The notes under the pieces were generated by a model that was not told the origin of the DNA, ran no database searches, and saw only the letters and a program-made list of their open reading frames with translations. DNA of 60,265 nucleotides from an uncultured bacterium (GTDB lineage Bacteria; Patescibacteriota; Gracilibacteria; Absconditabacterales; Absconditicoccaceae), in NCBI GenBank assembly GCA_946408385.1, contig CAMJSB010000007.1, positions 1-60,265 on the forward strand, given 5' to 3'. Each line of letters begins with the position of its first letter. Position 1 is the first letter of the stretch. The translations under genes and the position numbers were made by a program. Below are positions 34,819 to 60,192 of the stretch, piece by piece.

Positions 34819-37800
34819 ATGACTACATTAGAATTGATGGATTCAATACTTCAATATTGGAAAGATAATAACACATTTCAAAGATCAATTGACGAAAGAT
34901 CAGAGCAGATGCAATTTCGTTTCTTCGATGGACCTCCATTTGCTTCATGAGATCCTCACTATGGACATTTATTAGCATGAGCTATCAAAGACGTTTTCCC
35001 TCGTTATATGACGATGAGAGGTTTTCGTGTAGAGAGAAAATGGTGATGGGATTGTCATGGATTGCCTGTAGAAAAAGCTGTAGAGAAGAAACTATGAATT
35101 GATGGTAAAAGAGATATAGAAAATAAAATCTGAATTAAAGCATTTACCGAAGAATGTAGAAAATACGTAGATAATACAAACGAAGTTTGGAAATGGTTTG
35201 TAGACCATTCTGGACGTTGGGCAGATATCGAGCATCCATATCGTACTATGGACTTGGATTTCATGGAAAGTGTAATGTACTGTTTTTCAAATATTTATAG
35301 ACAAAATCTAGTTTATAAGTGATTCAAGGTTCAGTGGTATTGTCCAAGCTGTGCTACACCACTTGCAAATAATGAAGTAACGGATGGATATGAAGATAAA
35401 ACTGATACAGCAATTACGGTCAGATTTAAATTTACTAATAAAGCATACTCAAATAGATTCAACTATGAAATCACTCCAAGTGACGAAGCTGTGAATGTAG
35501 TTTGCTGTGTAATCAAGAGAGATGGAAAATATTTACTAGAATATTGAGTTAAAGCTCAGAAATATGTTTTCCCTGGATGAAAAGTAGAAAAATGAGATAG
35601 TATAGAAAAAACTGTAGCTAAAGAAATCAAAGAAGAACTAGATGTGGAGACAAAGAGCTGTAAAATTTTATGAGAATTTAAAGAATTACTCAATTGAAAT
35701 ATCTGGAATTTAATTTATGTTGAAGCTGAAATAGAAGGTGAGCCAAAAATTATGGAACCAGATAAAATTACTCAACTTCAATGGGCTGAAATAAGAGAAA
35801 GTGAAAATGAAATCTGAATGGAAGTGGTTATCGATTGAACAGTTATGGATGATCCACAAGAAATAATCAGCCAGTTTTATGATTTATATATAGCTCACAA
35901 TGAAATTTGGTCCAAAATTCAGGCAGATGCTCCAGTTTATGCATTGGCTTGGACTACTACTCCATGGACATTACCATCAAATAGCTTCTTGGCAGTTTGA
36001 CCAGAAATTCATTACAGCATGGTTTATGACAAAGAAAGTCATGAATACTATATTTTAGCAGATGCTTTACTCAAGAAGTATTATAAAAATCCTGAAGATT
36101 ATATTTTGGTAAATAAAATTAAAGGTTCAAAATTGGTCTGAACATTCTATATCCCACTATTTGAATATATCAATAATTCTAAACTTCCTGCTGAATACAA
36201 AGATAGATATTTCCAGATGATACCTGGAGATTATGTAAGTACAGAAGACTGAACATGAATAGTACATATTGCTCCAACATTTGGACAGGAGGACTTTGAA
36301 GTAGTTGCAGATTTATTCTGAGCTGACAAAGCATTAGACTGGTTGTTTATTGCAGTAAATGAATATGGAGAATTTGATCATCAAGTTCCAGACTATGAGT
36401 GACAGAGTGTTTTGAAAGTTAATAAAGATATTATAGACCGTTTAAAAGCTGAAAGAAAATTAATTAAATCTGAATCAATAACGCACTCATATCCTCACTG
36501 TTGGAGATGTCATACACCTCTCATATCCAAAGCAATGTCATCTTGGTTTATCAAAGAACAACAGATGAATGCTCAGACGCTTGAAGATGCAGAAAAGATT
36601 AAATTTGTTCCAGAAAATGTTTCAAATAGATTTGTAAATTGATTAAAACAAGCTCCAGACTGGAATGTTGCTAGAAATAGATATCGATGAAGTCCTTTGC
36701 CAATTTGGGCAAACGTAGACGATACATTGGACACATTCTCTCTTTCAACATTGGACGAGATGTACCAATTAACTCGTTCATGATCAAAGAATCTGACTAA
36801 ATTCATGTTCATTCGCCATGGAAGAACTGATTGTAACGTCAGTCGCAAGCAGGATTCACGTTGAGATTTAGCTCATTTAACGGATGAATGAAAACAGCAA
36901 GTAGAACAAGCAAGAAATGAACTAACATATTTAAAAACAGATCCAGATAAAATTTTATTAATCTCTCCTATGGAAAGAGTTCGAGAAACAGCTTTACCTA
37001 TAATGAATGATTGGTGCTCAGCAGAGCAGGTGAGTGCAATTAGAAAAAACTATGAAAATTTTCAATCAAAATTTAGAGAATTACGAGATTCTAATCAGAT
37101 TATTGAATATCTTCAAAATCCTGAAAATGAGACATTATATGACCTTTGATATGGAGTTTGGTGAGATTTCCGCGACTGTGAATTCTTGCAAATATCACTC
37201 CAGTGAAAAGATGAAGAAGCTGGATTACATGTAAAACATCCGACAGATACTCCATTATTTCCATGAGATGAGTCTATCGACCAAATGATTAATAGAACTC
37301 AGATTATGGTTCGTAAATTAGCTGAGAAATTTGCTACGAAAACAGTAGTTGTAATTTCTCACGGAGATCCAATTTGGTGAATGAGATCAGCTTTCAGACC
37401 TTTGGTTTATGCTAGAGATAAAGCGAAATATTATCCAAGAAACGGAGTAATTAACATTCATTATCGAGATAATGATGCAAAAACAGAGGTTAATCTTCAC
37501 AAACCATATGTGGATACATATTGGTGAATTAGAGATGGGAAAATATATAAGAGAATTCCAGAAGTGATGGATTGTTGGTTTGAATCATGAGCAATGCCAT
37601 TCGGACAGGATCACTATATCGGACAAAAAGAGAAGGAAAATCAGAGTTATACAGCAGAATTTATAGCTGAATGATTGGATCAGACTAGATGATGGTTCCG
37701 TTCATTACATATTCTAAATCATGCAATTAAATGAAATAATGCGGCAAATAATATCGTAGTAAATGGACTAGTCCTCGCAGAAGATGGAAAGAAAATGTCA

Positions 37801-38850
37801 AAAAGTCTGAGAAACTTCCCAGATCCTCGTGGATTGATAGAGCAGTGGTGATGAGATGCATATAGAATTTATGTATTGAGTGCTCCAGTAGTTCGTGCAG
37901 AACCTATGAGATTTAGCGAAAAATGAGTAGAGCAGTCATTCAAAGATTATATCCTTCCACTTCAGAATGTATATAATTTCTTTGAAACTTATGCTAAGAT
38001 AGATCAATGGAAATCTGATTGAAATCAAATTTTTGCAATGAGAGATGATAGTGAAATCTCGGATTATAAAGAATTAGTAGAGCAGTTAGTTCGTGTAAAT
38101 CCAGATATAATTCTAACTTCTGATAATACCAAATGAGAAGCTGTAAAATCATTAATCAACAAATATACACCAAAAGCTAAAGATATCGAAATTAAATCAG
38201 CAGATTTATCAGATTACTTTAATCTAGTTAAGTGATTTGAAACTAAACGTGTATTGATTCTTGCATCAGATGAACAGATTAAATCAATATGGAATACTAT
38301 TTCATGAAAGGCAGATAAATCATTAGAAAAATGAGTTGTACTTCCATTAGTTACATATCAAATTACAAATGATTTGGATGCTTGGTTACTCTCAGAATTA
38401 CATCAAACTTTAATCAAAGAAGATGAACTTCTTCAAAGATACGCTCTTGATGACGCTATTAAGTCAACATTAGATTTCTTAGATAAACTTACAAATCGAT
38501 GGTTACGTCGTTCTAGAAGAAGATTCTGGGCTAATGGAATGGATGCAGACAAGAATGCTGCATATTCTACATTGTACACAGTTCTCAAAACTTACTTACA
38601 AATGCTAGCTCCATTCATACCATTCATTACTGAGAAATTGTGGCAGAATTTAGCAGATTTCTCTACAGAAAAGATTGATTCAATTCATCTTACATATCGA
38701 CCAATGGCTTCAGAATTGTACATTTCACCAGATTTGATGGAAGAAATTGCACAAGTTCGTAAGATTATCAAATTAGCATTATTTGTTCGTGCTAAGAATA
38801 AGGTAGCTATTAAGCAACCATTACAAAAGTTATCAGTTAAAATGGAATAA
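34819..38850 (+). CDS. ileS: Isoleucyl-tRNA synthetase with inserted Nudix and histidine-phosphatase domains
   Basis: 1343 residues, well above the usual 900-1100. Class I motifs are intact: P-H-Y-G-H (residues 46-50) and K-M-S-K-S (992-996), with [11 protein letters not shown] in the editing region and C-W-F-E-S-G before the catalytic half. Residues about 222-361 are a Nudix hydrolase domain (V-F-P-G-G-K-V-E-K-G-D then A-K-E-I-K-E-E-L). Residues about 655-900 are a histidine-phosphatase domain (F-I-R-H-G-R-T-D with R666 and H667, S-P-M-E-R-V-R-E-T and V-V-I-S-H-G-D-P). A third insertion at about 1070-1180 resembles a degenerate small phosphatase. All are in frame with no stop. The tail ends in the anticodon-binding domain. 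Confidence 0.95.
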
Positions 38851-39179: not shown

Positions 39180-39674
39180 ATGGATTGTGGAAACTATTGT
39201 ATATCACGAATATTATCAAAAATCAATTATAATTTTGAACGATCAGATTTTATATTTTCTGAAGTTTTCCCTTGAGTATCATTACTCCCAAAGATCTGAA
39301 TTTTATTATTTGAACATTCCCCAAATGTTGGGATAATACATGAGAAACAAGACATTTTCATAAATTTAAAAGATGAAGAACTTCCATTATTAGAAGAGTA
39401 TAAACATCGATTAAATGAATTTCAAAAATTGTGATGAAAATATTCTAATCATGAAATTAATATTAAATACTTAAAAGAAAATCTGAAAGATAATTATTGT
39501 ATCATCCCAATAAAGAAAGGGGAGTGAAGTCATTTCGTGATTTTAAATTCAATAGATGAAAATCAAGTAAATTTAGTGGACAATAAAAAGTGAGAATTTA
39601 GTGTCTCTATTGTTGAATTTGAAGATTTAATGGATTTAGAAAATTGAAAATATGTTTTATTCGCAGGTAAATAA
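39180..39674 (+). CDS. C39-like cysteine peptidase
   Basis: 164 residues. The start M-D-C-G-N-Y-C matches the D-C-G active-site pattern of C39/papain-like peptidases, with Cys3 as likely nucleophile, and S-H-F-V-I-L-N-S then V-D-N (about 124-140) fits the catalytic His and Asp region. It has no signal peptide. Its TAA overlaps the ATG of the transporter by one base, so the two are cotranslated. C39 enzymes often cut leader peptides of exported peptides, which fits the peptide and radical SAM genes nearby. An in-frame stop upstream shows that the protein starts at the catalytic motif. Confidence 0.6.
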
Positions 39675-40876
39675 TGATTAAAAAGATAGGATTAAAATTT
39701 TTACGACCATTTTACACACAAAGTATAATCCCTAGTTTATCTAAGTTGATACTCCCATTTTATGTAATTTATTTTTTAGATATTTGACTAACTCTTTGGC
39801 AAATCGCATTGATTGGTAGTTTTAGAAGTGTTGTATCATTAATATCAGAAATTCCAACATGAACTATAGCAGATTTATACTGAAAGAAAATCAGTGTTAT
39901 TTTATGATTTATTTTATCATGAATAACTGTATTTTGTATCCCATTTTCCCATTCATTTGTTGGAATTTGTATTATATTTTGTATCAATGCATTGACAGAA
40001 ACTTTGTTTTCAGGTTCAGACCAGGCTTGGGTATCTGATGTGATAGAAAAAAATGATAAAAAACTGATTGATTCATATTTTTCTTGGAATAGAAGTATTC
40101 GTAATTTTTGATTTATTATAGCATGAATATTAGCGAGCTTAGTTGCAAAATATCTTTGATATGATTGGTTATGGTTTGTTTATGGAGCATGAACTATTAT
40201 AGCAGGAATTGTCCTTTGCTTTGCAGAAAACTGAAAAGAATGATATGAAGAAGAGTGAGAAGATTGGTTGAAAAAAGATTTTTGGCTTCATATAAAATCT
40301 ACATTTAAGTATATAGCAAAGAATAAAGTTATTTGTTTACTATTCATTTGAATTGCAGTATTCTACATTATTGATGAATTGACTGGACTTATACGAACTC
40401 CATATATTCAAGAATTATGAATAGATATAGATAATCTCGGATTTATTTACTGAATTATCTGAGTTTGCTGAATTTTTGCACCTTTAATTGCAGAAAAAAT
40501 TCTGAAGATGCAGAAAAATTCTATGTTCTATATTCTGTGAATATGTATTTGAATGGCAGTTCTGCTTGTAGTATCAAGTCTTTCTACATCCGCAATTCTT
40601 ATTATTTGAATTTTTGTGGTATATAATTTCATTGATGATTTTATTTTACCGATAGATGAAACGGTAACGAGTAAAATAGCAGAGAAGTCCCAAAGGTCTA
40701 CAATTCTATCAGTGAAATCTATGGTAGAAAATTTGGCTTGTATCGTTTGATGACCTTTGGCTTGAATTTTATTAGGTTGTGTTTCTTATGCTCAATGATT
40801 GTTAGTTGCTGCGGGATTGATGGTGATAATCGGGGTTGTTTATTATATTAGCATAAAAAGGGTAGCATGTAATTAA
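39674..40876 (+). CDS. MFS transporter
   Basis: 400 residues with about 12 hydrophobic segments and the MFS pattern of two six-helix halves split by a charged loop near residues 195-220. Between helices 2 and 3, G-T-I-A-D-L-Y-G-K-K resembles the MFS motif G-x-x-x-D-R-x-G-R-[KR]. Many Gly are TGA. It overlaps the C39-like gene by one base. Export of a processed peptide is a reasonable guess from context. Confidence 0.85.
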
Positions 40877-40893
40877 CATCCTACCCATTTTTT
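40855..40893. terminator. Terminator between transporter and precursor peptide genes
   Basis: gggtag (40860-40865) pairs with ctaccc (40881-40886) next to a T-run; the stem overlaps the transporter stop. It can end both the + transporter transcript and the minus peptide transcript. Confidence 0.7.
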
Positions 40894-40905
40894 GTAGAGT
40901 CTTCA

Positions 40906-41070
40906 CTAGTCTTTGCCACCAGTACAAGAGCAATTACAACTTTTGCAACCCGGTCCACAGAGAGAATACTTCTCTATTTTTGGGTTAACTTTACCTAACA
41001 CAGCCTGAGCCGTGCCTTTCCTGACATAAGGCTCCCTTGCGCCAAGAAAGTTAACTTTTCTAGTAATCAT
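40906..41070 (-). CDS. Candidate RiPP precursor peptide, Cys-rich tail
   Basis: 54 residues. The first 36 residues form a polar, basic leader-like part (M-I-T-R-K-V-N-F-L-G-A-R-E-P-Y). The last 18 contain C-G-P-G-C-K-S-C-N-C-S-C-T-G-G-K-D, with five Cys in an x3-x2-x-x spacing. Cys-rich cores next to radical SAM/SPASM enzymes are typical substrates for thioether formation (sactipeptides, ranthipeptides). All seven Gly use GGN, none TGA, as in the radical SAM gene. There is no good Shine-Dalgarno. The gene is too short for ORF callers with a length cutoff. A metal-binding small protein is the main alternative. Confidence 0.6.
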   Translation of the reverse strand: MITRKVNFLGAREPYVRKGTAQAVLGKVNPKIEKYSLCGPGCKSCNCSCTGGKD

Positions 41071-41081
41071 AACTTATTTTG

Positions 41082-41110
41082 TTGACTTTTATATCAACTA
41101 TCACTATAGT
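41082..41110 (+). promoter_or_regulatory. Promoter of the amidohydrolase gene, with palindromic -10
   Basis: TTGACT (41082-41087) and TATAGT (41105-41110) are 17 bp apart. The -10 lies in actatagt (41103-41110), a perfect 8-bp palindrome that also offers a -10 to the opposite strand toward the precursor peptide (TTGATT at 41133-41128, 19 bp spacing). gttga/tcaac (41081-41098) is an inverted repeat in the same region. Confidence 0.6.
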
Positions 41111-41164
41111 AGAAAAAATAAAAATTAAATCAATAGAAAATTATAAATCATTTTTCGTAAAACA

Positions 41165-42130
41165 ATGATAGAAGATTTCGTGTTTTCAGAAAAAGAAAAA
41201 AACAGTATTAAACAAAGTATGGATTTAATTCCTGACAATATTTTTGATATTCATAATCATGTATATTTAAAAAGCAATATTCAAGAAGAACTTCAAGATG
41301 CACTTTTCTATGATGAATTTTCTTTTGATGATTTACCTAAAGCAAAAAAAACTCTTTATCCATGAAAAAATGTGGAATCAGTAGTGTTTTGACAGCCTCA
41401 GATGAGTATTCAATATATAAAAAACAACAATGATTATATAAAATCGTATTCAAAAAATAAGTTTTTACTTCTGCCTGATGATGACATTTATATTGAAACT
41501 GAACTAATGTCATGAAAATGGAAAGGGGCTAAAGTCTATTGATTTAACGAAAAAATACTAAGCAATATATCTATTAAAACTTTAACTATACTTGATAAAA
41601 AAAGTTTACCCTTAATAATTCATCTTCCGTTTAATATAATAAAAAATCAAAAAGAACTTTGTAATTTATTGAAAAGATATAAAAATGTAATGTTTATCGT
41701 TGCACACTGAGGAAATGTCCAAAAATGCAAAAGTGATTATGAATGATATATAAAAGCATTACAAACATTGAAGAATTTTGATAATATCTGATTTGATACT
41801 TCGTGTATTAATGACAAAGAATTTTTAAAAATTTTAGTAGATTCTTTTGATAGAGAAAGAATTTTTTATTGATCAGATTTGCCAATCTCTCTTTTAAGAG
41901 GAACTGTGTTGCCGGGTAAAAATTGAACAGCAAGAATAATCTCTGATAAATTTATTAAATGAATTGATAATAACTTAAGTAGAACTATAATAAAAAATCT
42001 TAACTTAGATCTATCTAACATTATAAATATACAACTAACTACAATTTCACTGTTATGAAAAACATTATCTTATGATGATCTAGAAAAAATTTTTTACAAA
42101 AATACTAAGTCTCTTAACCTTTTTTTCTAA
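41165..42130 (+). CDS. Amidohydrolase-like TIM-barrel protein
   Basis: 321 residues. F-D-I-H-N-H-V (about 28-34) provides the metal-binding H-x-H of the first strand, I-V-A-H-G-G-N (about 179-185) a later His, and I-F-Y-G-S-D-L-P (about 235-242) the final Asp, all in the order of the amidohydrolase_2 family. It may hydrolyse or decarboxylate a small molecule or a modified peptide; the substrate is unknown. It is convergent with the methyltransferase gene and overlaps its end by 17 bp. Confidence 0.8.
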
Positions 42131-42662
42131 TTTCAATATAGCCAATATGATGAACATGGGCCCCGATGGGAGCATGATTTTCTTCAAGGAAGAGTTCTTC
42201 TTTGTATTGAATAGAAAAAGAACTATTATTTGAATTTTCAAAATCATCAAAAGTATAGAATGAAAGAGGTTTTGAGCTCATAGTCTCATCATCTGGGAAA
42301 AAGAAAGATAAAGTAAATACTCAATTATCTTCTAATAACTCAACCAATTCTGGCAACAATAATTCAAGAAAAAACTTCTTTTTTAAGAATGGAACAACAT
42401 TTAGTAATAATATTAAAGAATATTCTCAACTTAAAATAGATTCTGGAAGTTCTCTTAAATCGGCATTAATAAATTTTATATTTGGATGTCATTGTAAATA
42501 TTCGGGTCGTAGCCAATTTTCTTTTGATTCGTTATCCAATGCAATAACTTTATTTCAAAAGCTAGCACAAAAAATACTATATCTTCAATCTCAAGCTCAA
42601 AGATCAAGGATGGTTCATTGATAATTAGGAAGTAGTTTTGCTAATTGTTTGCAAAGAATCAT
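42114..42662 (-). CDS. Class I SAM-dependent methyltransferase
   Basis: 182 residues. Motif I is I-L-D-L-G-A-G-D-G-R-Y-S (about 20-31), with its Gly codons as TGA, then V-I-A-L-D-N-E and L-I-L-L-L-N-V-V-P-F for the later strands. Length fits a tellurite-resistance/TehB-like small methyltransferase, but the substrate is not clear. It lies on the same strand as the radical SAM gene, about 85 bp after its terminator. Confidence 0.85.
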
Positions 42663-42718
42663 AAAAGTAAAATTACAAAATGAATGCAACAATCATAGAA
42701 AAATAAATAAAATATTCA

Positions 42719-42749
42719 AGGAGAAAAAGGAGGCTAAATTGCCTCCTTT
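42719..42749 (-). terminator. Terminator of radical SAM gene
   Basis: aaaggaggc (42726-42734) pairs with gcctccttt (42741-42749); the minus strand continues into a T-run. The stem overlaps the radical SAM stop codon. Confidence 0.85.
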
Positions 42750-43770
42750 AACGCCAGCATTGAGGATCTTTCTTGTAAAAAGAACCATAAGTGCCGTAGG
42801 ATACAGCAGGGCATCCTCTACAATAATTGAAAAGTTCGCAGTTATAGCACTCCATTTTCTCAAATTCACGATATGGAGCAATTCTTTTCGAGAAGAATAC
42901 TTCCTTAAAGGAATCAATAAGAGCATTACCAATCTTGCTAGAGAACCTTCTGCAAGCATAAATGTCGCCATTTGACAGCACACACATGTGTCGCATCGCA
43001 CACCCACAACCTTCATAAATAGTATTCTCTCCTTTTGTTTTAAAGAGGCCTTTTTCATAAAGGAATGGGGTCCAAAGATGATCTTTTAAGAAGAATTTTG
43101 TTTCACGATATGCAAGCTCATCATAGACATTCCATACTTGTGATAGAAAATTACGATATTCATTAGGTGGAATGTTATAAATTCCACGGTCCAATGAAGT
43201 CGGACAATAGCGAGCAAATGCAAATCCTCCCACAGGAATCTCGACAACATACCGAATAACATCAATCACTTCTTTGTAGTTCATTTGAGAAACAGTCATC
43301 ATGATATGAGATTCGATTTCTGCTTTATTGAGAATGTAGATTGCTTCAATTGTAGCATCGAAAGATCCAGGCTTACGGATAGAATCGTGAGTGTGTTTCA
43401 TACCATCAATTGAAAGTTGATAGGTTTCGCATCCAAGATCCTTTAAACGTTTTGCCACTTCAAAATTAAGATGAAAAGGGTTTCCTAGGATGTCAAATGG
43501 TATATTTTTCTGATGAAGATAGTTGAGGATTAACCAAATCTCATCATGCATGAGAGGATCTCCGCCAGTAATAGCAACCGACGGATTGCATTCTAATAAT
43601 TCGCAAAGGTTACAAAAATTCTCTACGATTTTTTGAACATTCGTAAATGACAAATAGCTTCTTTTAAATGATTTGTCATTGAAGATGTAGCAATGCTTGC
43701 ATCTTTGATCGCAGTCGTCTGTGATATGCAACTGCATACCAAACCAATGGTTGAAACTTTGGTTACTCAT
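42748..43770 (-). CDS. Radical SAM/SPASM peptide-modifying enzyme, TGA-free
   Basis: 340 residues. The radical SAM cluster motif is C-D-Q-R-C-K-H-C-Y (residues 19-27), followed by A-I-T-G-G-D-P-L and S-I-D-G. The C-terminal SPASM-like region has Cys in G-C-G-C-A-M, V-C-x-n-C-R-R and M-E-C-Y-N-C-E-L-F-N-Y-C-R-G-C-P, ligands for auxiliary Fe-S clusters. Such enzymes modify ribosomal peptides. All Gly codons (about 20) are GGN and the gene reads intact in the standard code, unlike its neighbours. A strong AGGAGGT lies 7 nt before the ATG with a TTGACA/TATATA promoter. Both suggest transfer from a standard-code, SD-using bacterium. Confidence 0.93.
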   Translation of the reverse strand: MSNQSFNHWFGMQLHITDDCDQRCKHCYIFNDKSFKRSYLSFTNVQKIVENFCNLCELLECNPSVAITGGDPLMHDEIWLILNYLHQKNIPFDILGNPFHLNFEVAKRLKDLGCETYQLSIDGMKHTHDSIRKPGSFDATIEAIYILNKAEIESHIMMTVSQMNYKEVIDVIRYVVEIPVGGFAFARYCPTSLDRGIYNIPPNEYRNFLSQVWNVYDELAYRETKFFLKDHLWTPFLYEKGLFKTKGENTIYEGCGCAMRHMCVLSNGDIYACRRFSSKIGNALIDSFKEVFFSKRIAPYREFEKMECYNCELFNYCRGCPAVSYGTYGSFYKKDPQCWR

Positions 43771-43777
43771 ATTAAAT

Positions 43778-43784
43778 ACCTCCT
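43778..43784 (-). promoter_or_regulatory. Shine-Dalgarno of radical SAM gene
   Basis: AGGAGGT on the minus strand, 7 nt before ATG 43770. Other genes checked in the window lack a comparable site, so this one is exceptional. Confidence 0.85.
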
Positions 43785-43829
43785 ATTTCTTTAATTTGTT
43801 TGTATTAATGTTTTATTTTCACATAAGGA

Positions 43830-43857
43830 TATATACTAAAAAATATAAAAATGTCAA
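43830..43857 (-). promoter_or_regulatory. Radical SAM gene promoter
   Basis: Consensus TTGACA (43857-43852) and TATATA (43835-43830) on the minus strand with 16 bp between them. Confidence 0.7.
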
Positions 43858-43915
43858 GTTGATTAATTTGGGTAAAATCTTACACGAGGTATATATCTAA
43901 AAATATATAATTTTC

Positions 43916-44391
43916 TTAGATGTTTCCTCATTTTAACATTTTTATCCAATCGTTGAATTTTTGAATCCATTCATAATCATTCTCTGTCATTTCATTAGAA
44001 TCTGACAATAATTTTTTAATTTTACATTCTTCATCGGGTGAATTTGGAATATATACTTTATCATAGTTACAAATAATTTTCTGTGAAGAAATTCAATCCC
44101 ACTTTTCATTTACTACATAAAAATCTTTTAATTCAGAATTAAATGTAGCATCAAGATCAATCCATTCTCAACCAATATTCATCTTTAAAAATACGTGGTA
44201 TCATTTTTTATTTGCATATCATCAATTGAAACAATTTCATATCATAATTCTTCGGCCAAAAGTTTAGAAACTGTACCTTTTCCACTTCAGCTTTTTCATC
44301 ACATTTTTCAATCCAAACTTTTTTGTCATAATTTATGGACTTTACTTACTGGAATTATAAAAAACGTTCAATGCTTTTGTCTAACTGAAAT
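43916..44391 (-). pseudogene. Broken transglutaminase-like or P-loop gene remnant
   Basis: Two overlapping minus-strand frames carry protein-like sequence. The upstream frame reads G-G-K-S-G-S-G-K-G-T-V-S-K-L-L-A-E-E-L-G and stops at a TAA near 44191. A second frame, open from about 44265 to TAA 43916, reads Y-H-V-F-L-K-M-N-I-G-G-E-W-I-D-L-D-A-T-F, resembling the His/Asp part of transglutaminase-like proteins. Joining them by a frameshift near 44200 gives one continuous domain. The G-S-G-K-G-T stretch also looks like a P-loop, so the identity of the N-terminal part is open. Likely a decayed gene. Confidence 0.45.
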
Positions 44392-55647: not shown

Positions 55648-56853
55648 ATGAAAAAAACACTTTGCGAACTGTTTGCTTGAGTATGATGATTTAGAGTTTG
55701 ATTAGAAGCAAATGATTCTTGATGGGAAACAGTTCGAGCTAATCAACGAGAACCTAGTAGAATCGCACAATATGCTTTTGATTGTTATTGTGCTAATTTT
55801 TGATGAAAACAAGATAAGTATTCAAATTTAGATATCGCAAAAGTTGTAAAAAAAGATATTCCAGATCACAATTTATTGGTTTGAGGTTTTCCTTGTCAAG
55901 ACTATTCCGTTGCGAGATCATGAGCAAAAGGAATACAAGGTAAAAAGTGAGTTCTTCGGCGACAAATTAAAGATATTCTTATCGAAAAAAAACCAAGTTT
56001 TGTATTGTTAGAAAATGTTGATAGACTTTTGAAATCTCCATGAAATCAAAGATGAAGAGATTTTTGAATAATATTAGCATGTTTTAATGAATTATGATAT
56101 ACTGTTGAATGGAGAATTATTAATGCGGCTGATTATTGATGGGTTCAGAGAAGAAGGAGAACATTTATATTTGCTTATAAAAACACGACTAAATTTTGAA
56201 AATCAATAAAAAATAAATCTTTTGAAGAAATATTACACGAAGATTGATTCTTTATTAAGGAATTTGATATAGAAAAAACTCCATTACAAAAAAGGGAAGC
56301 AGAATTTAAATATAAAGATTTAGTTGAAATTTCTGATAAATTTGAATTTAATTTTTGAAACGCATGAGTAATGAGAAATGGTAAAATATACACGGAAGAA
56401 GTTGTCCCTCATTATGAATGAAAAAAAATGACTTTGTGAGATATTATACAAGATAGCGTTGATGAAAAATACAAGATAAAACAAGATAAAAGTAAATGGG
56501 AATATTTAAAATGACCTAAAAGAATTATTAGAAAACAATGAACACCACAAGAATATGTTTTTAGTGAATGAGGTATAGCTTTCCCAGATCCTCTTGATAG
56601 ACCAGCAAGAACAATGCTTACAAGCGAATGAAGTTTAAATAGGAGTACACACGTAATTCAAGATAAAAATTGAGATTTAAGAATTCTAACACCAATTGAA
56701 ACAGAGCGTATTAATTGATTTCCAGATGATTGGACAAGTAAATGATGAATGCCAGAAAGTTTCAGATATTTTTGTATGGGAAATGCATTATGTGTTCCGA
56801 TGATTACAAAAATGTGAAAAAGATTAGATGATATAATTGAAAAAGAGGATTAA
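55648..56853 (+). CDS. DNA (cytosine-5) methyltransferase
   Basis: 401 residues. Motif I is L-F-A-G-V-G-G-F-R-V-G-L-E with TGA at most Gly, motif IV is G-G-F-P-C-Q-D-Y with the catalytic Cys, motif VI is L-L-E-N-V-D-R, motif VIII is Q-R-R-R-R, and motifs IX-X are near the C-terminus (E-R-I-N-G-F-P and G-N-A). The length and the paired nuclease suggest an M.Sau3AI-like enzyme that methylates GATC to protect host DNA; the target is inferred from the partner. Its TAA overlaps the end of the convergent nuclease gene by 4 bp. Confidence 0.95.
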
Positions 56854-58310
56854 TTTCCTCCTTTTTCTATTTGCTGTTTTATGTATTTTTGGTTAAATCG
56901 GAAACATTTTTTAGTAGCCATTCATCAATTTGGGGTAGGGAACATATCTTTTGAATTTATTCAATGAGGTCTTACATGAATAATCATATCATCTTTTATA
57001 GTTATTAATTTATCATATTCTCATCATTTTATTTTATCCTTTGTTTTATTCCATGCAGTTTTGATATCTCATTCTAAATCACTTCATGGGACATTCCAAA
57101 ACATAGCTTTTTTGAAAATTAAATTAGATTGTTTTGTATCTGTATATTGAAAAATCATAAATAGAAATTTAGATTCATAGAATAAATTATACAAATCAGA
57201 ATCGTAATAGTCTTGATTTATAATTTCCATATATTTAAAAGTTGGAAATGACATTGCTTCTTTCGGTACTCAATTCGATTTTAGTCTAATCGTTTTTATT
57301 TCAATATTTGCTTTATCAAATTCTTCAATTCTATCTTCATTAACTCATAACATTCTTTTTGCTAATATATAATAGTTAGATTTTGATTTACTATTTACTC
57401 AAAATTGTTTCAATAAATCATTAGCATTATAACCATAATATTTTTCTAATTTTGAAATTATATAATCTTCAAATCATTTTTCTTTTAATATATTACTATC
57501 TGTAATAGCTTTCCCATATGTAATTTCGTTTTTTAATCAATTTAATTGTTGCTTAATAGAATCTTCTTTTGTTTTGTATGTATGAATACCTTTAACTAGA
57601 TATTCATTCAAAATCATTGTCATATAAGAATTTTTTAAGCAAAAAGCTCTTTGTTTCGCAGGAATTGAACTATTTGGTTGCTCTCTCATGACAGAACTAT
57701 CAGCTCATTTAGTACACGCTCATAGATAAATTGTATCTCATTCAGATAGTTCGTGAGCTTTTCATTCAGCGATTTTTTTAATAATTTTATTGTAATCGCT
57801 TTTTATAATTTCATAATCTGTTTCTGGAAATTCAAATAAATCAATATAATTAATAAAATAATCATCATCAGCCTTATTTTTGTCGTAAAAATAATAAATA
57901 AGAAGCATTAAAGCACATTTTCCCAGTAAATGACTATTTTCAAATGGTATTTTATAATCATTCATGTAATTAATAATTGTCAGTACTAACCTTTCTTTTG
58001 CTCTTAATCATCTCGAATTTTTTTCGTATGGAGAAACTTTTAACTCAACTCATGCTTCAGGAAAATCTGCTTCATTATTTGAATTTTTATTATAATAGAA
58101 GAAGTTTTCTTCAATGAAATGTCAGTATCGTCATTTATTTTTTGGCATGGAAAACTGTTTTCTTATTATATTTTTTTGTTCTTCATTTAAATTTTTATCT
58201 TCCTCTAAAATTTGACTAAATGTTTTTCATTTTAGTTTTTTCGCATACGTTAAAATTGAATCAGGACTTGTTTTGTCGTATGGTAATGGGTTAACAATGG
58301 GTGCTGTCAT
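56850..58310 (-). CDS. Sau3AI/MutH-type restriction endonuclease
   Basis: 486 residues, close to Sau3AI (489). The MutH-type core is visible: G-R-Y-G-H-F-I-E-E-N-F-F, then D-F-P-E-A-G-V-E-L-K-V (Asp, Glu and Lys of the D-x-n-E-x-K site) and A-K-E-R-L-V-L-T-I-I-N-Y. A second, weaker copy of the fold in the C-terminal half is expected from Sau3AI and fits the length. It probably cuts unmethylated GATC. It is convergent with the methyltransferase and divergent from the OLD gene. Confidence 0.9.
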
Positions 58311-58479
58311 AACTATTTTTTAATAAAATACTGTATATTTCTTACTATCTTTTCTTTTAATTAAATCAAGTTTTTTATAAAATTTGACAAAATTGTGAAA
58401 ACATAATCTTTTCTTGAAATTTTTACATGAAAAAATATATCAAAAATGATAGTAAATCTTTAGATTTTTATCAGATAAA

Positions 58480-60192
58480 ATGAAATTGTCTAGTTTTTCT
58501 GTTACAAATTTTAGAAGTATTACGCAAACACATAAAATTGATTTATCATGATCTAGTGTTACAGTTTTTGTATGAAAAAATAATGAATGAAAATCAAATA
58601 TATTAAAAGCATTAAATATATGTATGAATGTTATTAGAATTCCTATGTTTAGATATGCGGATCCTTATTATGTTCATAAAGATATCCGATATCGTGATTG
58701 GGATAAATTTGAAAGAGATTCTTATATTCGAAAGAGGGATTTTCCAATAAAATTGAGAAATGAAGAGTGTAAAGAAACAAATTTTTTATTAGAATTTGAT
58801 TTAACTAAAGAAGATATTCTAAATATAAAAACGAATCTGTGAAAAAAAAGACTTAAAATGGATAAAATTTTAGTGGTTCATATAATGTTTAATGAAAATT
58901 CTAAGCCTAAGATAACTATCGATTGAATAAAAGAGTCAGCAAAAGTTATTACGTATATTTCTGATAATATCGATTTTACATATATTCCAGCTATTAGAAC
59001 AGAAAAAGAGATTTTATCGATGATAGATGATAGAATATCGAATGCTTTATATAAATTAGGCGATGATCCAGATTATAAGAGAGCTATAAATAAAATAAAG
59101 AAAAAACAAGATAAAGTATTTTGAGAGATTGAAAAGATAATACAAAAGCAAATAAATCCTTTTATACCTAACGTGAAAAAAATAAAAATAAAAAGAAGAG
59201 ATGAAGACCCTATTCCATTTAATTTTTGATCTCTAGCTAGTTTATATATTAATGATTGAACAGAAACGGATATCGAATTTAAATGAGATTGAATAAAAAG
59301 TTTAGTATCAATATCTCTTTTGCATAAATTATGATACTGAAATAAAAGTGGTTTAGTAGCAATTGAGGAACCTGAATCACATTTACATCCCGAAGCAATC
59401 CACTATTTAAATGAGGTTATAAGTGATTTATGAAAATCTGGACAGATATTAATATCTACACACAATCCGCTATTTGTTAATAGAAATGACATAAAATCTA
59501 ACATAATAGTCAATAAATGAGAGGCAAAACCAGCAGAAAACATTAGGGAAATAAGAAAAATCCTAGGTGTTGTTGTATCAGATAATCTTGTAAATGCTGA
59601 TAAAGTTTTAATCGTAGAATGACAGAATGATTATAAAATTTTAAAATCAATTTTCTCTTGTAACGATAACATAAAAGAATGAATAAAAAATTGATCATTT
59701 GCTATTTTACCAATAAATTCTTCATCTAATCTTTCATATGAATTATCTCGTTTAACTGATACTATGGTAAAATATATTGTTTTATTTGATAATGATAAGG
59801 CGTGAAAGGATGAAGTGGAAAAATCTATAAAGAAAAAACTTATTGATGAAAAAAACGTATACTTTATAAGTTGTAAAAGTAAAATTGAATCGGAGATTGA
59901 AGATATTATTAATGTGAATATTTATAAAACAAAGTTAGAAGATGAATTTGGTATAAAATTACCACAAAGAATCTCTAAGTCAGATAAAAAATGGTCAAAT
60001 ATAATGAAAAGTATATTTGAAGAACAATGAAAGGTTTGGAATGAAGAACAAAGGTTTAAAGCAAAATGGATAGTTTCCGAATGTGTTGAATCCGCATTAA
60101 AATGAAAAAAAGATTTTAATGTTGTATTATATAAATGAAAATCAACTTTTATGAAGTCATTTGTTAATAGAATTGAAGAATTTATAAAATAA
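58480..60192 (+). CDS. OLD-family ATPase/TOPRIM nuclease
   Basis: 570 residues. The N-terminal ABC-type ATPase has V-T-N-F-R-S-I, Walker A V-G-K-N-N-E-G-K-S-N (about 32-41), a signature region and Walker B V-A-I-E-E-P-E-S-H-L-H-P-E (about 288-300), then I-S-T-H-N-P. A TOPRIM domain follows: V-L-I-V-E-G-Q-N-D (about 376-384) and I-V-L-F-D-N-D-K-A-G (about 430-439). This is the class 1 OLD architecture used in phage defence, sometimes with a helicase (Gabija), which is not seen here. TGA codes the Walker A Gly. Confidence 0.92.

What the first reader, a model, noticed from the sequence alone, without database searches (positions are those of the whole stretch)
39180..43857. A RiPP-type peptide locus in a code-25 CPR bacterium
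A 54-residue Cys-rich peptide gene sits among a C39-like peptidase, an MFS exporter, an amidohydrolase, a methyltransferase and a radical SAM/SPASM enzyme. Together they would make, cut and export a thioether-containing peptide. I know of no described example in Absconditabacteria or Gracilibacteria, whose small genomes are thought to lack such pathways. A secreted peptide could act on the host or on competitors.
Basis: partly seen in the sequence, partly recalled or inferred. Interest (0 to 1): 0.85.

Follow-up and report, generated by a model that had tools for sequence, protein, structure and literature searches.

The report
Acquired radical-SAM peptide maturation genes
A tiny symbiont-type bacterium that reads the stop codon TGA as glycine carries a borrowed enzyme of a known but untested peptide-modifying family and a probable substrate peptide, placed where a close relative carries a quite different peptide-modifying gene set.

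Summary
The genes described are present. The radical SAM/SPASM enzyme (42748-43770, -) belongs to TIGR04340 (AcgM, "ACGX system"), a known but untested peptide-maturase family: 424.5 bits, cut-off 400. The 54-aa peptide (40906-41070, -) is probably its precursor: AQ-type leader motif (modest statistics) and Cys-dense tail, but no ACGX repeats and not adjacent upstream. Both genes carry no TGA (0/19 and 0/7 glycine codons; window rate 63%) and are GC-rich: recently acquired from a standard-code donor. The methyltransferase and amidohydrolase between them are code-25-adapted and absent from about 80 other ACGX loci. C39 and MFS are resident genes also found in congeners, in one (G419) without RiPP genes. 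Congener G420 has, at the same MFS junction, a YcaO/SagB/Cys-rich-peptide cassette written in code 25. Three other code-25 genomes carry a multi-radical-SAM cluster with a conserved precursor (DYYEAES[RW]QFSGCGD) containing a TGA-coded glycine. The RiPP reading is largely right, but the six-gene "pathway" is a mosaic. RiPPs in CPR bacteria have been reported before. New variant of a known kind.

The parts
42748..43770 (-). AcgM-type radical SAM/SPASM enzyme, 340 aa; CxxxCxxC at C20/C24/C27, SPASM Cys C255, C273, C308, C311, C317, C320, C338; no RRE domain; no TGA codon
   Evidence: TIGR04340 424.5 bits over cut-off 400; invariant Cys in 19 homologues; AF2 model pLDDT 86 closest to anSME/SuiB/SkfB; 0/19 Gly codons TGA, GC 0.37
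40906..41070 (-). 54-aa putative precursor peptide, leader ...YVRKGTAQAVLGK..., tail LCGPGCKSCNCSCTGGKD; no TGA codon
   Evidence: leader HMM of family precursors: 12/20000 and 6/20000 shuffles as good; ungapped 45-aa match to the L052 precursor, 2/4000 shuffles
42114..42662 (-). SAM-dependent methyltransferase, 182 aa, code-25-adapted (8/11 Gly = TGA); role uncertain
   Evidence: PF13649, PF03848 over cut-offs; no homologue in fetched ACGX loci
41165..42130 (+). Amidohydro_2 family protein, 321 aa, 11 TGA; role uncertain, possibly a passenger
   Evidence: PF04909 38.6 bits; no homologue in 352 other class genomes, in plasmids or in ACGX loci
39180..39674 (+). Stand-alone C39-like peptidase, resident code-25 gene
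   Evidence: PF03412; homologues in G420, G419, G415, G394 with conserved DCG, GSH and DNK
39674..40876 (+). MFS transporter following the C39 gene, resident code-25 gene (24 TGA)
   Evidence: PF07690 116 bits; 88% identical in G420, same order in G419
40847..43930 (.). Segment replacing the MFS/transglutaminase junction of congener G419; its left edge coincides with that of the YcaO cassette in G420
   Evidence: DNA alignment of the flanks to L152 and L134 stops and resumes here
42726..42749 (-). Intrinsic-terminator-like hairpin right behind the radical SAM gene
43779..43784 (-). AGGAGG Shine-Dalgarno sequence 8 nt before the radical SAM start codon
   Evidence: sequence
43931..44341 (-). 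Scars: fragments of a transglutaminase-like gene, cytidylate kinase and GNAT gene that are intact in G419
   Evidence: blastn pieces 43931-44226, 44211-44304 and 44287-44338 to L152

Best explanation
This is a horizontally acquired AcgM/AcgA-like radical SAM RiPP unit in a code-25 Gracilibacteria-type CPR bacterium, set down beside a resident C39 peptidase and MFS exporter next to ileS. Shown: the enzyme's family and intact cluster-binding cysteines, the foreign codon signature of enzyme and peptide, and a different RiPP cassette at the same junction in a congener. Inferred: the 54-aa peptide is the enzyme's substrate, recognised through its TAQ-type leader without an RRE domain. The 5'-deoxyadenosyl radical would abstract a hydrogen in the Cys-rich tail (LCGPGCKSCNCSCTGGKD), and a cysteine held on a SPASM cluster would close one or more thioether (or similar) links. 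The product may be trimmed by the C39 protein and exported by the MFS. The methyltransferase may add a methyl group, and the amidohydrolase may be a passenger.
For: TIGR04340 hit over the curated cut-off; the next family, SbtM, is far below its own. Of 84 homologous loci, 70 have a Cys-repeat precursor just upstream. Precursors of this family share a leader motif ...[KR][KHR][ST]AQ[SAGD][YV][LMFI]..., and the window peptide has Y..K.TAQAVLG in register. Only 6-12 of 20000 shuffles score as well, and it aligns without gaps over 45 aa, Cys tail included, to the precursor beside the deep-branching homologue L052. Both genes share the same foreign signature: no TGA and high GC, whereas the other 9 radical SAM matches in the genome all have in-frame TGA. 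The structure model's nearest solved relatives mostly act on peptides. Congener G420 has, at the same MFS junction, YcaO + SagB-like + C39-like + Cys-rich peptide.
Against: The peptide is not an ACGX-repeat peptide (no TIGR04341 hit) and lies 1.7 kb downstream of the enzyme with two code-25 genes between, behind a terminator-like hairpin, so the two are probably not co-transcribed. The leader match is weak in absolute terms (4.7 to 5.9 bits): 11 of 4504 background ORFs score as well, though 5 of those are family precursors. The enzyme is in none of 7 congeners, so conservation cannot be used. C39 and MFS occur without RiPP genes in G419, and the C39 as read from its ATG lacks the usual upstream Gln. 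Chemistry and product are untested.
Confidence: 0.66

Rival explanations
1. All six genes are one dedicated biosynthetic pathway: C39 cuts, MFS exports, and amidohydrolase, methyltransferase and radical SAM all tailor the peptide.
For: Adjacency within 4.6 kb. C39-MFS stands next to two different RiPP cassettes in G000 and G420, which fits a shared cut-and-export module. The amidohydrolase is unique to this genome in its class, so it may have come with the cassette.
Against: C39-MFS exists in G419 without modification genes, and C39 alone in G415 and G394. Amidohydrolase and methyltransferase are code-25-adapted whereas peptide and radical SAM are not, so their histories differ. None of about 80 ACGX loci has homologues of either.
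Confidence: 0.15
2. The radical SAM gene is an orphan: its true precursor was left behind on transfer, and the 54-aa peptide is something else, for example a metallothionein-like metal-binding peptide with CxC/CxxC pairs.
For: Precursor genes normally lie directly upstream of acgM, and no such ORF is there. The tail CGPGCKSCNCSC would also bind metal. The leader match is modest.
Against: Peptide and enzyme share the same rare foreign codon and base signature. The AQ leader motif and the Cys tail lie in register with the L052 precursor. Some Methanobrevibacter ACGX loci carry AQ-leader peptides away from, and antisense to, the maturase, so distance is no bar.
Confidence: 0.13
3. Neutral passenger: a recently inserted, non-expressed fragment that is on its way to decay, like the gene scraps on its right flank.
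For: Broken transglutaminase, cmk and GNAT fragments lie beside it. The enzyme is absent from all congeners.
Against: Both genes are intact; the enzyme has all catalytic cysteines, a strong Shine-Dalgarno sequence and a terminator-like hairpin. Their TAA and TAG stops work in both codes.
Confidence: 0.05
4. Assembly artefact: standard-code DNA of another organism joined into the contig.
For: Radical SAM and peptide look foreign in code and GC.
Against: The two foreign stretches are separate, each enclosed within tens to hundreds of bases by TGA-rich genes, which would need four false joins. The flanks match congeners.
Confidence: 0.01

Closest known systems
TIGR04340/TIGR04341, ACGX system (AcgM maturase, AcgA ACGX-repeat peptide)
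   Same: Maturase over the family cut-off, same length and cysteine pattern, no RRE; peptide leader with the family's AQ motif
   Different: Precursor has a single non-repeat Cys cluster and stands 1.7 kb downstream instead of directly upstream; the enzyme forms a long basal branch (end branch 1.06, about 50% identity at most)
SbtM (TIGR04082), proposed thio(seleno)oxazole maturase
   Same: Next-best family match, over nearly the whole length
   Different: 192 bits against a cut-off of 350; lacks the roughly 190-residue N-terminal part of that model
Ranthipeptide/sactipeptide maturases CteB, SkfB, PapB
   Same: Radical SAM + SPASM/twitch architecture; CteB is the best sequence match in the PDB (9.5e-14); Cys-dense substrate
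   Different: No RRE domain; window core lacks the Cys-x3-acidic spacing seen in 41% of AcgA cysteines; bond type unknown
Linear azole peptide (TOMM) clusters, YcaO/SagB
   Same: Such a cassette sits at the same MFS junction in congener G420
   Different: The window genome has no YcaO match at all
CPR graspetides (PMC8939145)
   Same: RiPP genes in CPR bacteria
   Different: ATP-grasp chemistry; Gracilibacteria and Absconditabacteria are not mentioned in that paper

Membership tests
TIGR04340 rSAM_ACGX (enzyme) | Score over curated cut-off of 400 bits | tested here: met
   424.5 bits, 424.8 bits
TIGR04340 rSAM_ACGX (enzyme) | CxxxCxxC radical SAM motif and full SPASM cysteine set | tested here: met
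   C20, C24, C27, C255, C273, C308, C311, C317, C320 and C338 invariant in 19 homologues
ACGX system (AcgA-AcgM pair) | Precursor with ACGX repeats (TIGR04341) | tested here: not met
   No hit even at E 10, while control AcgAs hit
ACGX system (AcgA-AcgM pair) | Precursor gene directly upstream of acgM | tested here: not met
   70 of 84 loci have it; in the window no such ORF is upstream, and the peptide is 1.7 kb downstream
ACGX system (AcgA-AcgM pair) | Shared leader motif ([KR]xx[ST]AQx[YV][LMF]) | tested here: inconclusive
   Motif present; 12/20000 and 6/20000 shuffles reach the score, and 11/4504 background ORFs do
Sactipeptide/ranthipeptide | Cys thioether cross-links in the product | not testable with these tools
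   Needs mass spectrometry or NMR
Dedicated C39 leader peptidase + exporter of a RiPP cluster | Peptidase and transporter co-occur with the modification genes and not without them | tested here: not met
   Pair present in G419 without RiPP genes; C39 alone in G415 and G394
NCBI code 25 genome | TGA read as glycine in conserved proteins | tested here: met
   IleRS motifs, window-wide 63% of Gly codons

The most novel reading that the evidence does not exclude
In code-25 CPR bacteria the site behind ileS works as a plug-in dock for RiPP cassettes. A resident C39 peptidase and MFS exporter serve whichever modification module is inserted: radical SAM of standard-code origin in one species, YcaO/SagB in another. 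The lineage thus trades secreted modified peptides, some with precursors whose core contains TGA-encoded glycine and can only be made under the altered code.
Probability: 0.3. Interest if true: 0.75.

Novelty: new variant of a known kind. Interest (0 to 1): 0.56.

Why it matters
Host-dependent CPR bacteria with genomes near 1 Mb are thought to lack elaborate biosynthesis, yet several code-25 genomes examined here hold peptide-modifying gene sets of different chemistry. If the products are secreted, they are candidates for the unknown chemical tools by which these cells attach to, feed on or compete for hosts. Gene finders set to code 11 break TGA-coded precursors and enzymes, so standard RiPP mining would miss most of them; the acquired ACGX unit is visible because it has not yet drifted into the altered code. 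It is also a clean example of standard-code genes that can work unchanged in a code-25 cell: no TGA inside and a TAA or TAG stop.

Tried and rejected
Single-sequence scans of genome contigs and viral contigs with the enzyme found no relative; the profile scan did. A search for the peptide in the whole genome, plasmids and NCBIfam/Pfam gave nothing beyond itself. The L003 methyltransferase near another CPR acgM is not related to the window's. A leader-only pairwise test against L052 is weak (394/20000 shuffles); only the profile and full-length tests are useful. Promoter scan uninformative: 24 found, 22.7 expected. No tRNA or Rfam match in the window. The donor could not be named: the enzyme sits on a long basal branch. 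No relative of G239's acgM in 24 genomes of its family, so the CPR occurrences are sporadic. Assembly artefact considered and rejected. Literature terms for ACGX/TIGR04340/acgM returned no paper.
Full report
1. What is there. Read in code 25, the stretch holds C39 (39180-39674 +), MFS (39674-40876 +), a 54-aa peptide (40906-41070 -), an Amidohydro_2 protein (41165-42130 +), a methyltransferase (42114 to about 42662 -) and a radical SAM/SPASM enzyme (42748-43770 -). TGA falls on canonical glycines of IleRS, so code 25 is right. The peptide's density of cysteine (5 in 12 residues) is unique among the window's small ORFs and did not arise in 60 simulated windows.

2. The enzyme. It passes the cut-off of TIGR04340, the ACGX-system maturase family (424.5 bits against 400), with SbtM next at 192 bits, below its own cut-off. 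Of 380 genomes sampled over the phylum it is the only one over that cut-off; the next, G239 from another class, scores 360. All radical SAM and SPASM cysteines are invariant across 19 homologues. An AlphaFold2 model (pLDDT 86) is nearest to anSME, SuiB, SkfB, TigE, ChlB and PqqE, enzymes that act on peptides or proteins, apart from the nucleoside enzyme BlsE in the same range. It has no N-terminal RRE, and no other protein of the locus hit a PqqD/RRE model in Pfam. The family has a hypothetical-equivalog label and I found no paper that mentions it, so its chemistry is unknown. In 401 cysteines of AcgA-like precursors, 41% have an acidic residue at +4 and 21% at +3. Freyrasin, a ranthipeptide, links Cys to Asp (PMC8326336); that spacing recalls it, but the likeness is only a lead, and the window peptide lacks it.

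3. The peptide. Of 84 loci with a homologous maturase, 70 have a Cys-repeat precursor just upstream. Leaders of many of them share a motif ending in AQ[SAGD][YV][LMFI]. The window peptide has PYVRKGTAQAVLGK at the same place. A leader profile scores it 4.7 bits (12 of 20000 shuffles reach that) or 5.9 bits when further family members are included (6 of 20000). Against the precursor of L052 (a Bacilli MAG) it aligns without gaps over 45 residues, Cys tail included (2 of 4000 shuffles; 17 of 4000 when leader and tail are shuffled apart). This is moderate evidence. The core differs from ACGX repeats, as do those of L052 (VCECGCSDY) and probably G239 (SDCQADPCTCTGCSEWD), the other basal branches of the tree. 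A subgroup with short, non-repeat Cys cores is therefore likely.

4. Origin. The enzyme has 0 TGA among 19 glycine codons and the peptide 0 among 7, in a window where 63% of glycine codons are TGA (P about 6e-9 and 1e-3). Their GC is 0.37 and 0.43, against 0.24 to 0.29 for the immediate neighbours. The other nine radical SAM matches of the genome all contain in-frame TGA. None of the seven congeners has the enzyme. Both stops (TAA, TAG) work in either code. Enzyme and peptide are thus most simply read as recent arrivals from a standard-code donor. The donor cannot be named; relatives at about 50% identity are common in gut Methanobrevibacter, Lachnospiraceae and Bacteroidales. The amidohydrolase (11 TGA) and methyltransferase (8 of 11 Gly) between them are code-adapted, so the locus is a mosaic.

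5. The site. In congener G420 ileS is followed by the same C39 (80%) and MFS (88%), then directly by YcaO (PF02624, 1.6e-19; SagD-type), a SagB-like protein, a C39-like protein and a Cys-rich peptide (ATKCTCCGSRCGACAGCKGPESSEE), all with in-frame TGA. G409, same family, has the same YcaO set with a related leader elsewhere. In G419 the C39-MFS pair lies in a different context and is followed by transglutaminase, NUDIX and GNAT genes without RiPP genes; in G415 ileS has neither gene behind it. The window's DNA matches G419 up to 40846 and again from 43931, where only scraps of transglutaminase, cmk and GNAT remain. Two unlike RiPP cassettes therefore lie at the same junction. Whether C39 and MFS serve them or merely mark a hotspot is open.

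6. How it probably works. Shown: family, intact cofactor sites, foreign signature, shared insertion site. Inferred: the AcgM-like enzyme binds the TAQ leader, generates a 5'-deoxyadenosyl radical, and cross-links cysteines of the tail; resident C39 and MFS may cut and export. The methyltransferase may act on the product. I see no good ground to include the amidohydrolase.

7. Beyond the window. G426, G462 and G391 carry a TGA-rich cluster next to a phenylalanyl-tRNA synthetase gene: a short peptide ending in DYYEAES[RW]QFSGCGD (the glycine before the last residue encoded by TGA in G426 and G462), an HExxH protein, radical SAM genes (four in G426 and G462; the G391 contig ends early), and in the longer contigs a methyltransferase domain and an AspA/AstE-like protein. 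It is conserved between families and is better evidence than the window that the lineage itself makes modified peptides. YcaO genes occur in 16 of 353 class genomes.

8. Novelty. CPR graspetides are published (PMC8939145) and antiSMASH reported RiPP clusters including YcaO in CPR genomes (PMC12153355). New here, as far as the held library shows, are the code-25 setting, the non-repeat ACGX variant, the foreign-code signature, and two different cassettes at one junction. I rate it a new variant of a known kind.

Noticed in passing
L126 4573-11509, L127 4388-11330, L128 563-2700 (genomes G426, G462, G391): Conserved TGA-rich multi-radical-SAM cluster beside a phenylalanyl-tRNA synthetase gene, with a 40-50 aa peptide ending DYYEAES[RW]QFSGCGD (Gly before the final Asp = TGA), HExxH protein, methyltransferase domain and AspA/AstE-like protein; one enzyme is ACGX/SbtM-like below cut-off, one MftC/AhbD-like. 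Could be a RiPP or a peptide-derived cofactor pathway.
   Followed up: partly
L134 3153-6603 (G420) and L155 2154-5848 (G409): YcaO + SagB-like + C39-like + Cys-rich precursor cassettes in code 25, with a shared EGIS leader stretch; in G420 at the same MFS junction as the window's insert.
   Followed up: partly
L130 1-11150 and L129 658-5685 (G502, G486): Another radical SAM cluster in code-25 genomes: several radical SAM genes, a phosphoribosyltransferase fused to PQQ-like repeats, and (L130) a 244-aa Gly/Cys/His-rich protein.
   Followed up: no
window 34819-38850: Isoleucyl-tRNA synthetase of 1343 aa with a NUDIX domain and a histidine-phosphatase domain inserted in the catalytic region (PF00293, PF00300).
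   Followed up: partly
L045 8297-8560, L066 5809-6051, L111 6238-6459, L119 3380-3583: Methanobrevibacter ACGX loci hold a second peptide with the same AQ leader but TSCCIDTT repeats, away from and antisense to the maturase: perhaps a second substrate of the same enzyme family.
   Followed up: partly
genomes G417, G418, G421 (same genus): Their ileS and permease orthologues have almost no in-frame TGA, whereas G415, G419, G420 and the window genome use it heavily: TGA usage differs greatly within one genus.
   Followed up: no
window 55648-60192: Type II cytosine methyltransferase next to a MutH-domain restriction enzyme and an OLD/GajA-like ATPase-nuclease: a small defence island.
   Followed up: partly
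window 43931-44341: Mosaic of truncated transglutaminase, cytidylate kinase and GNAT fragments, traces of repeated deletion at the insertion site.
   Followed up: yes
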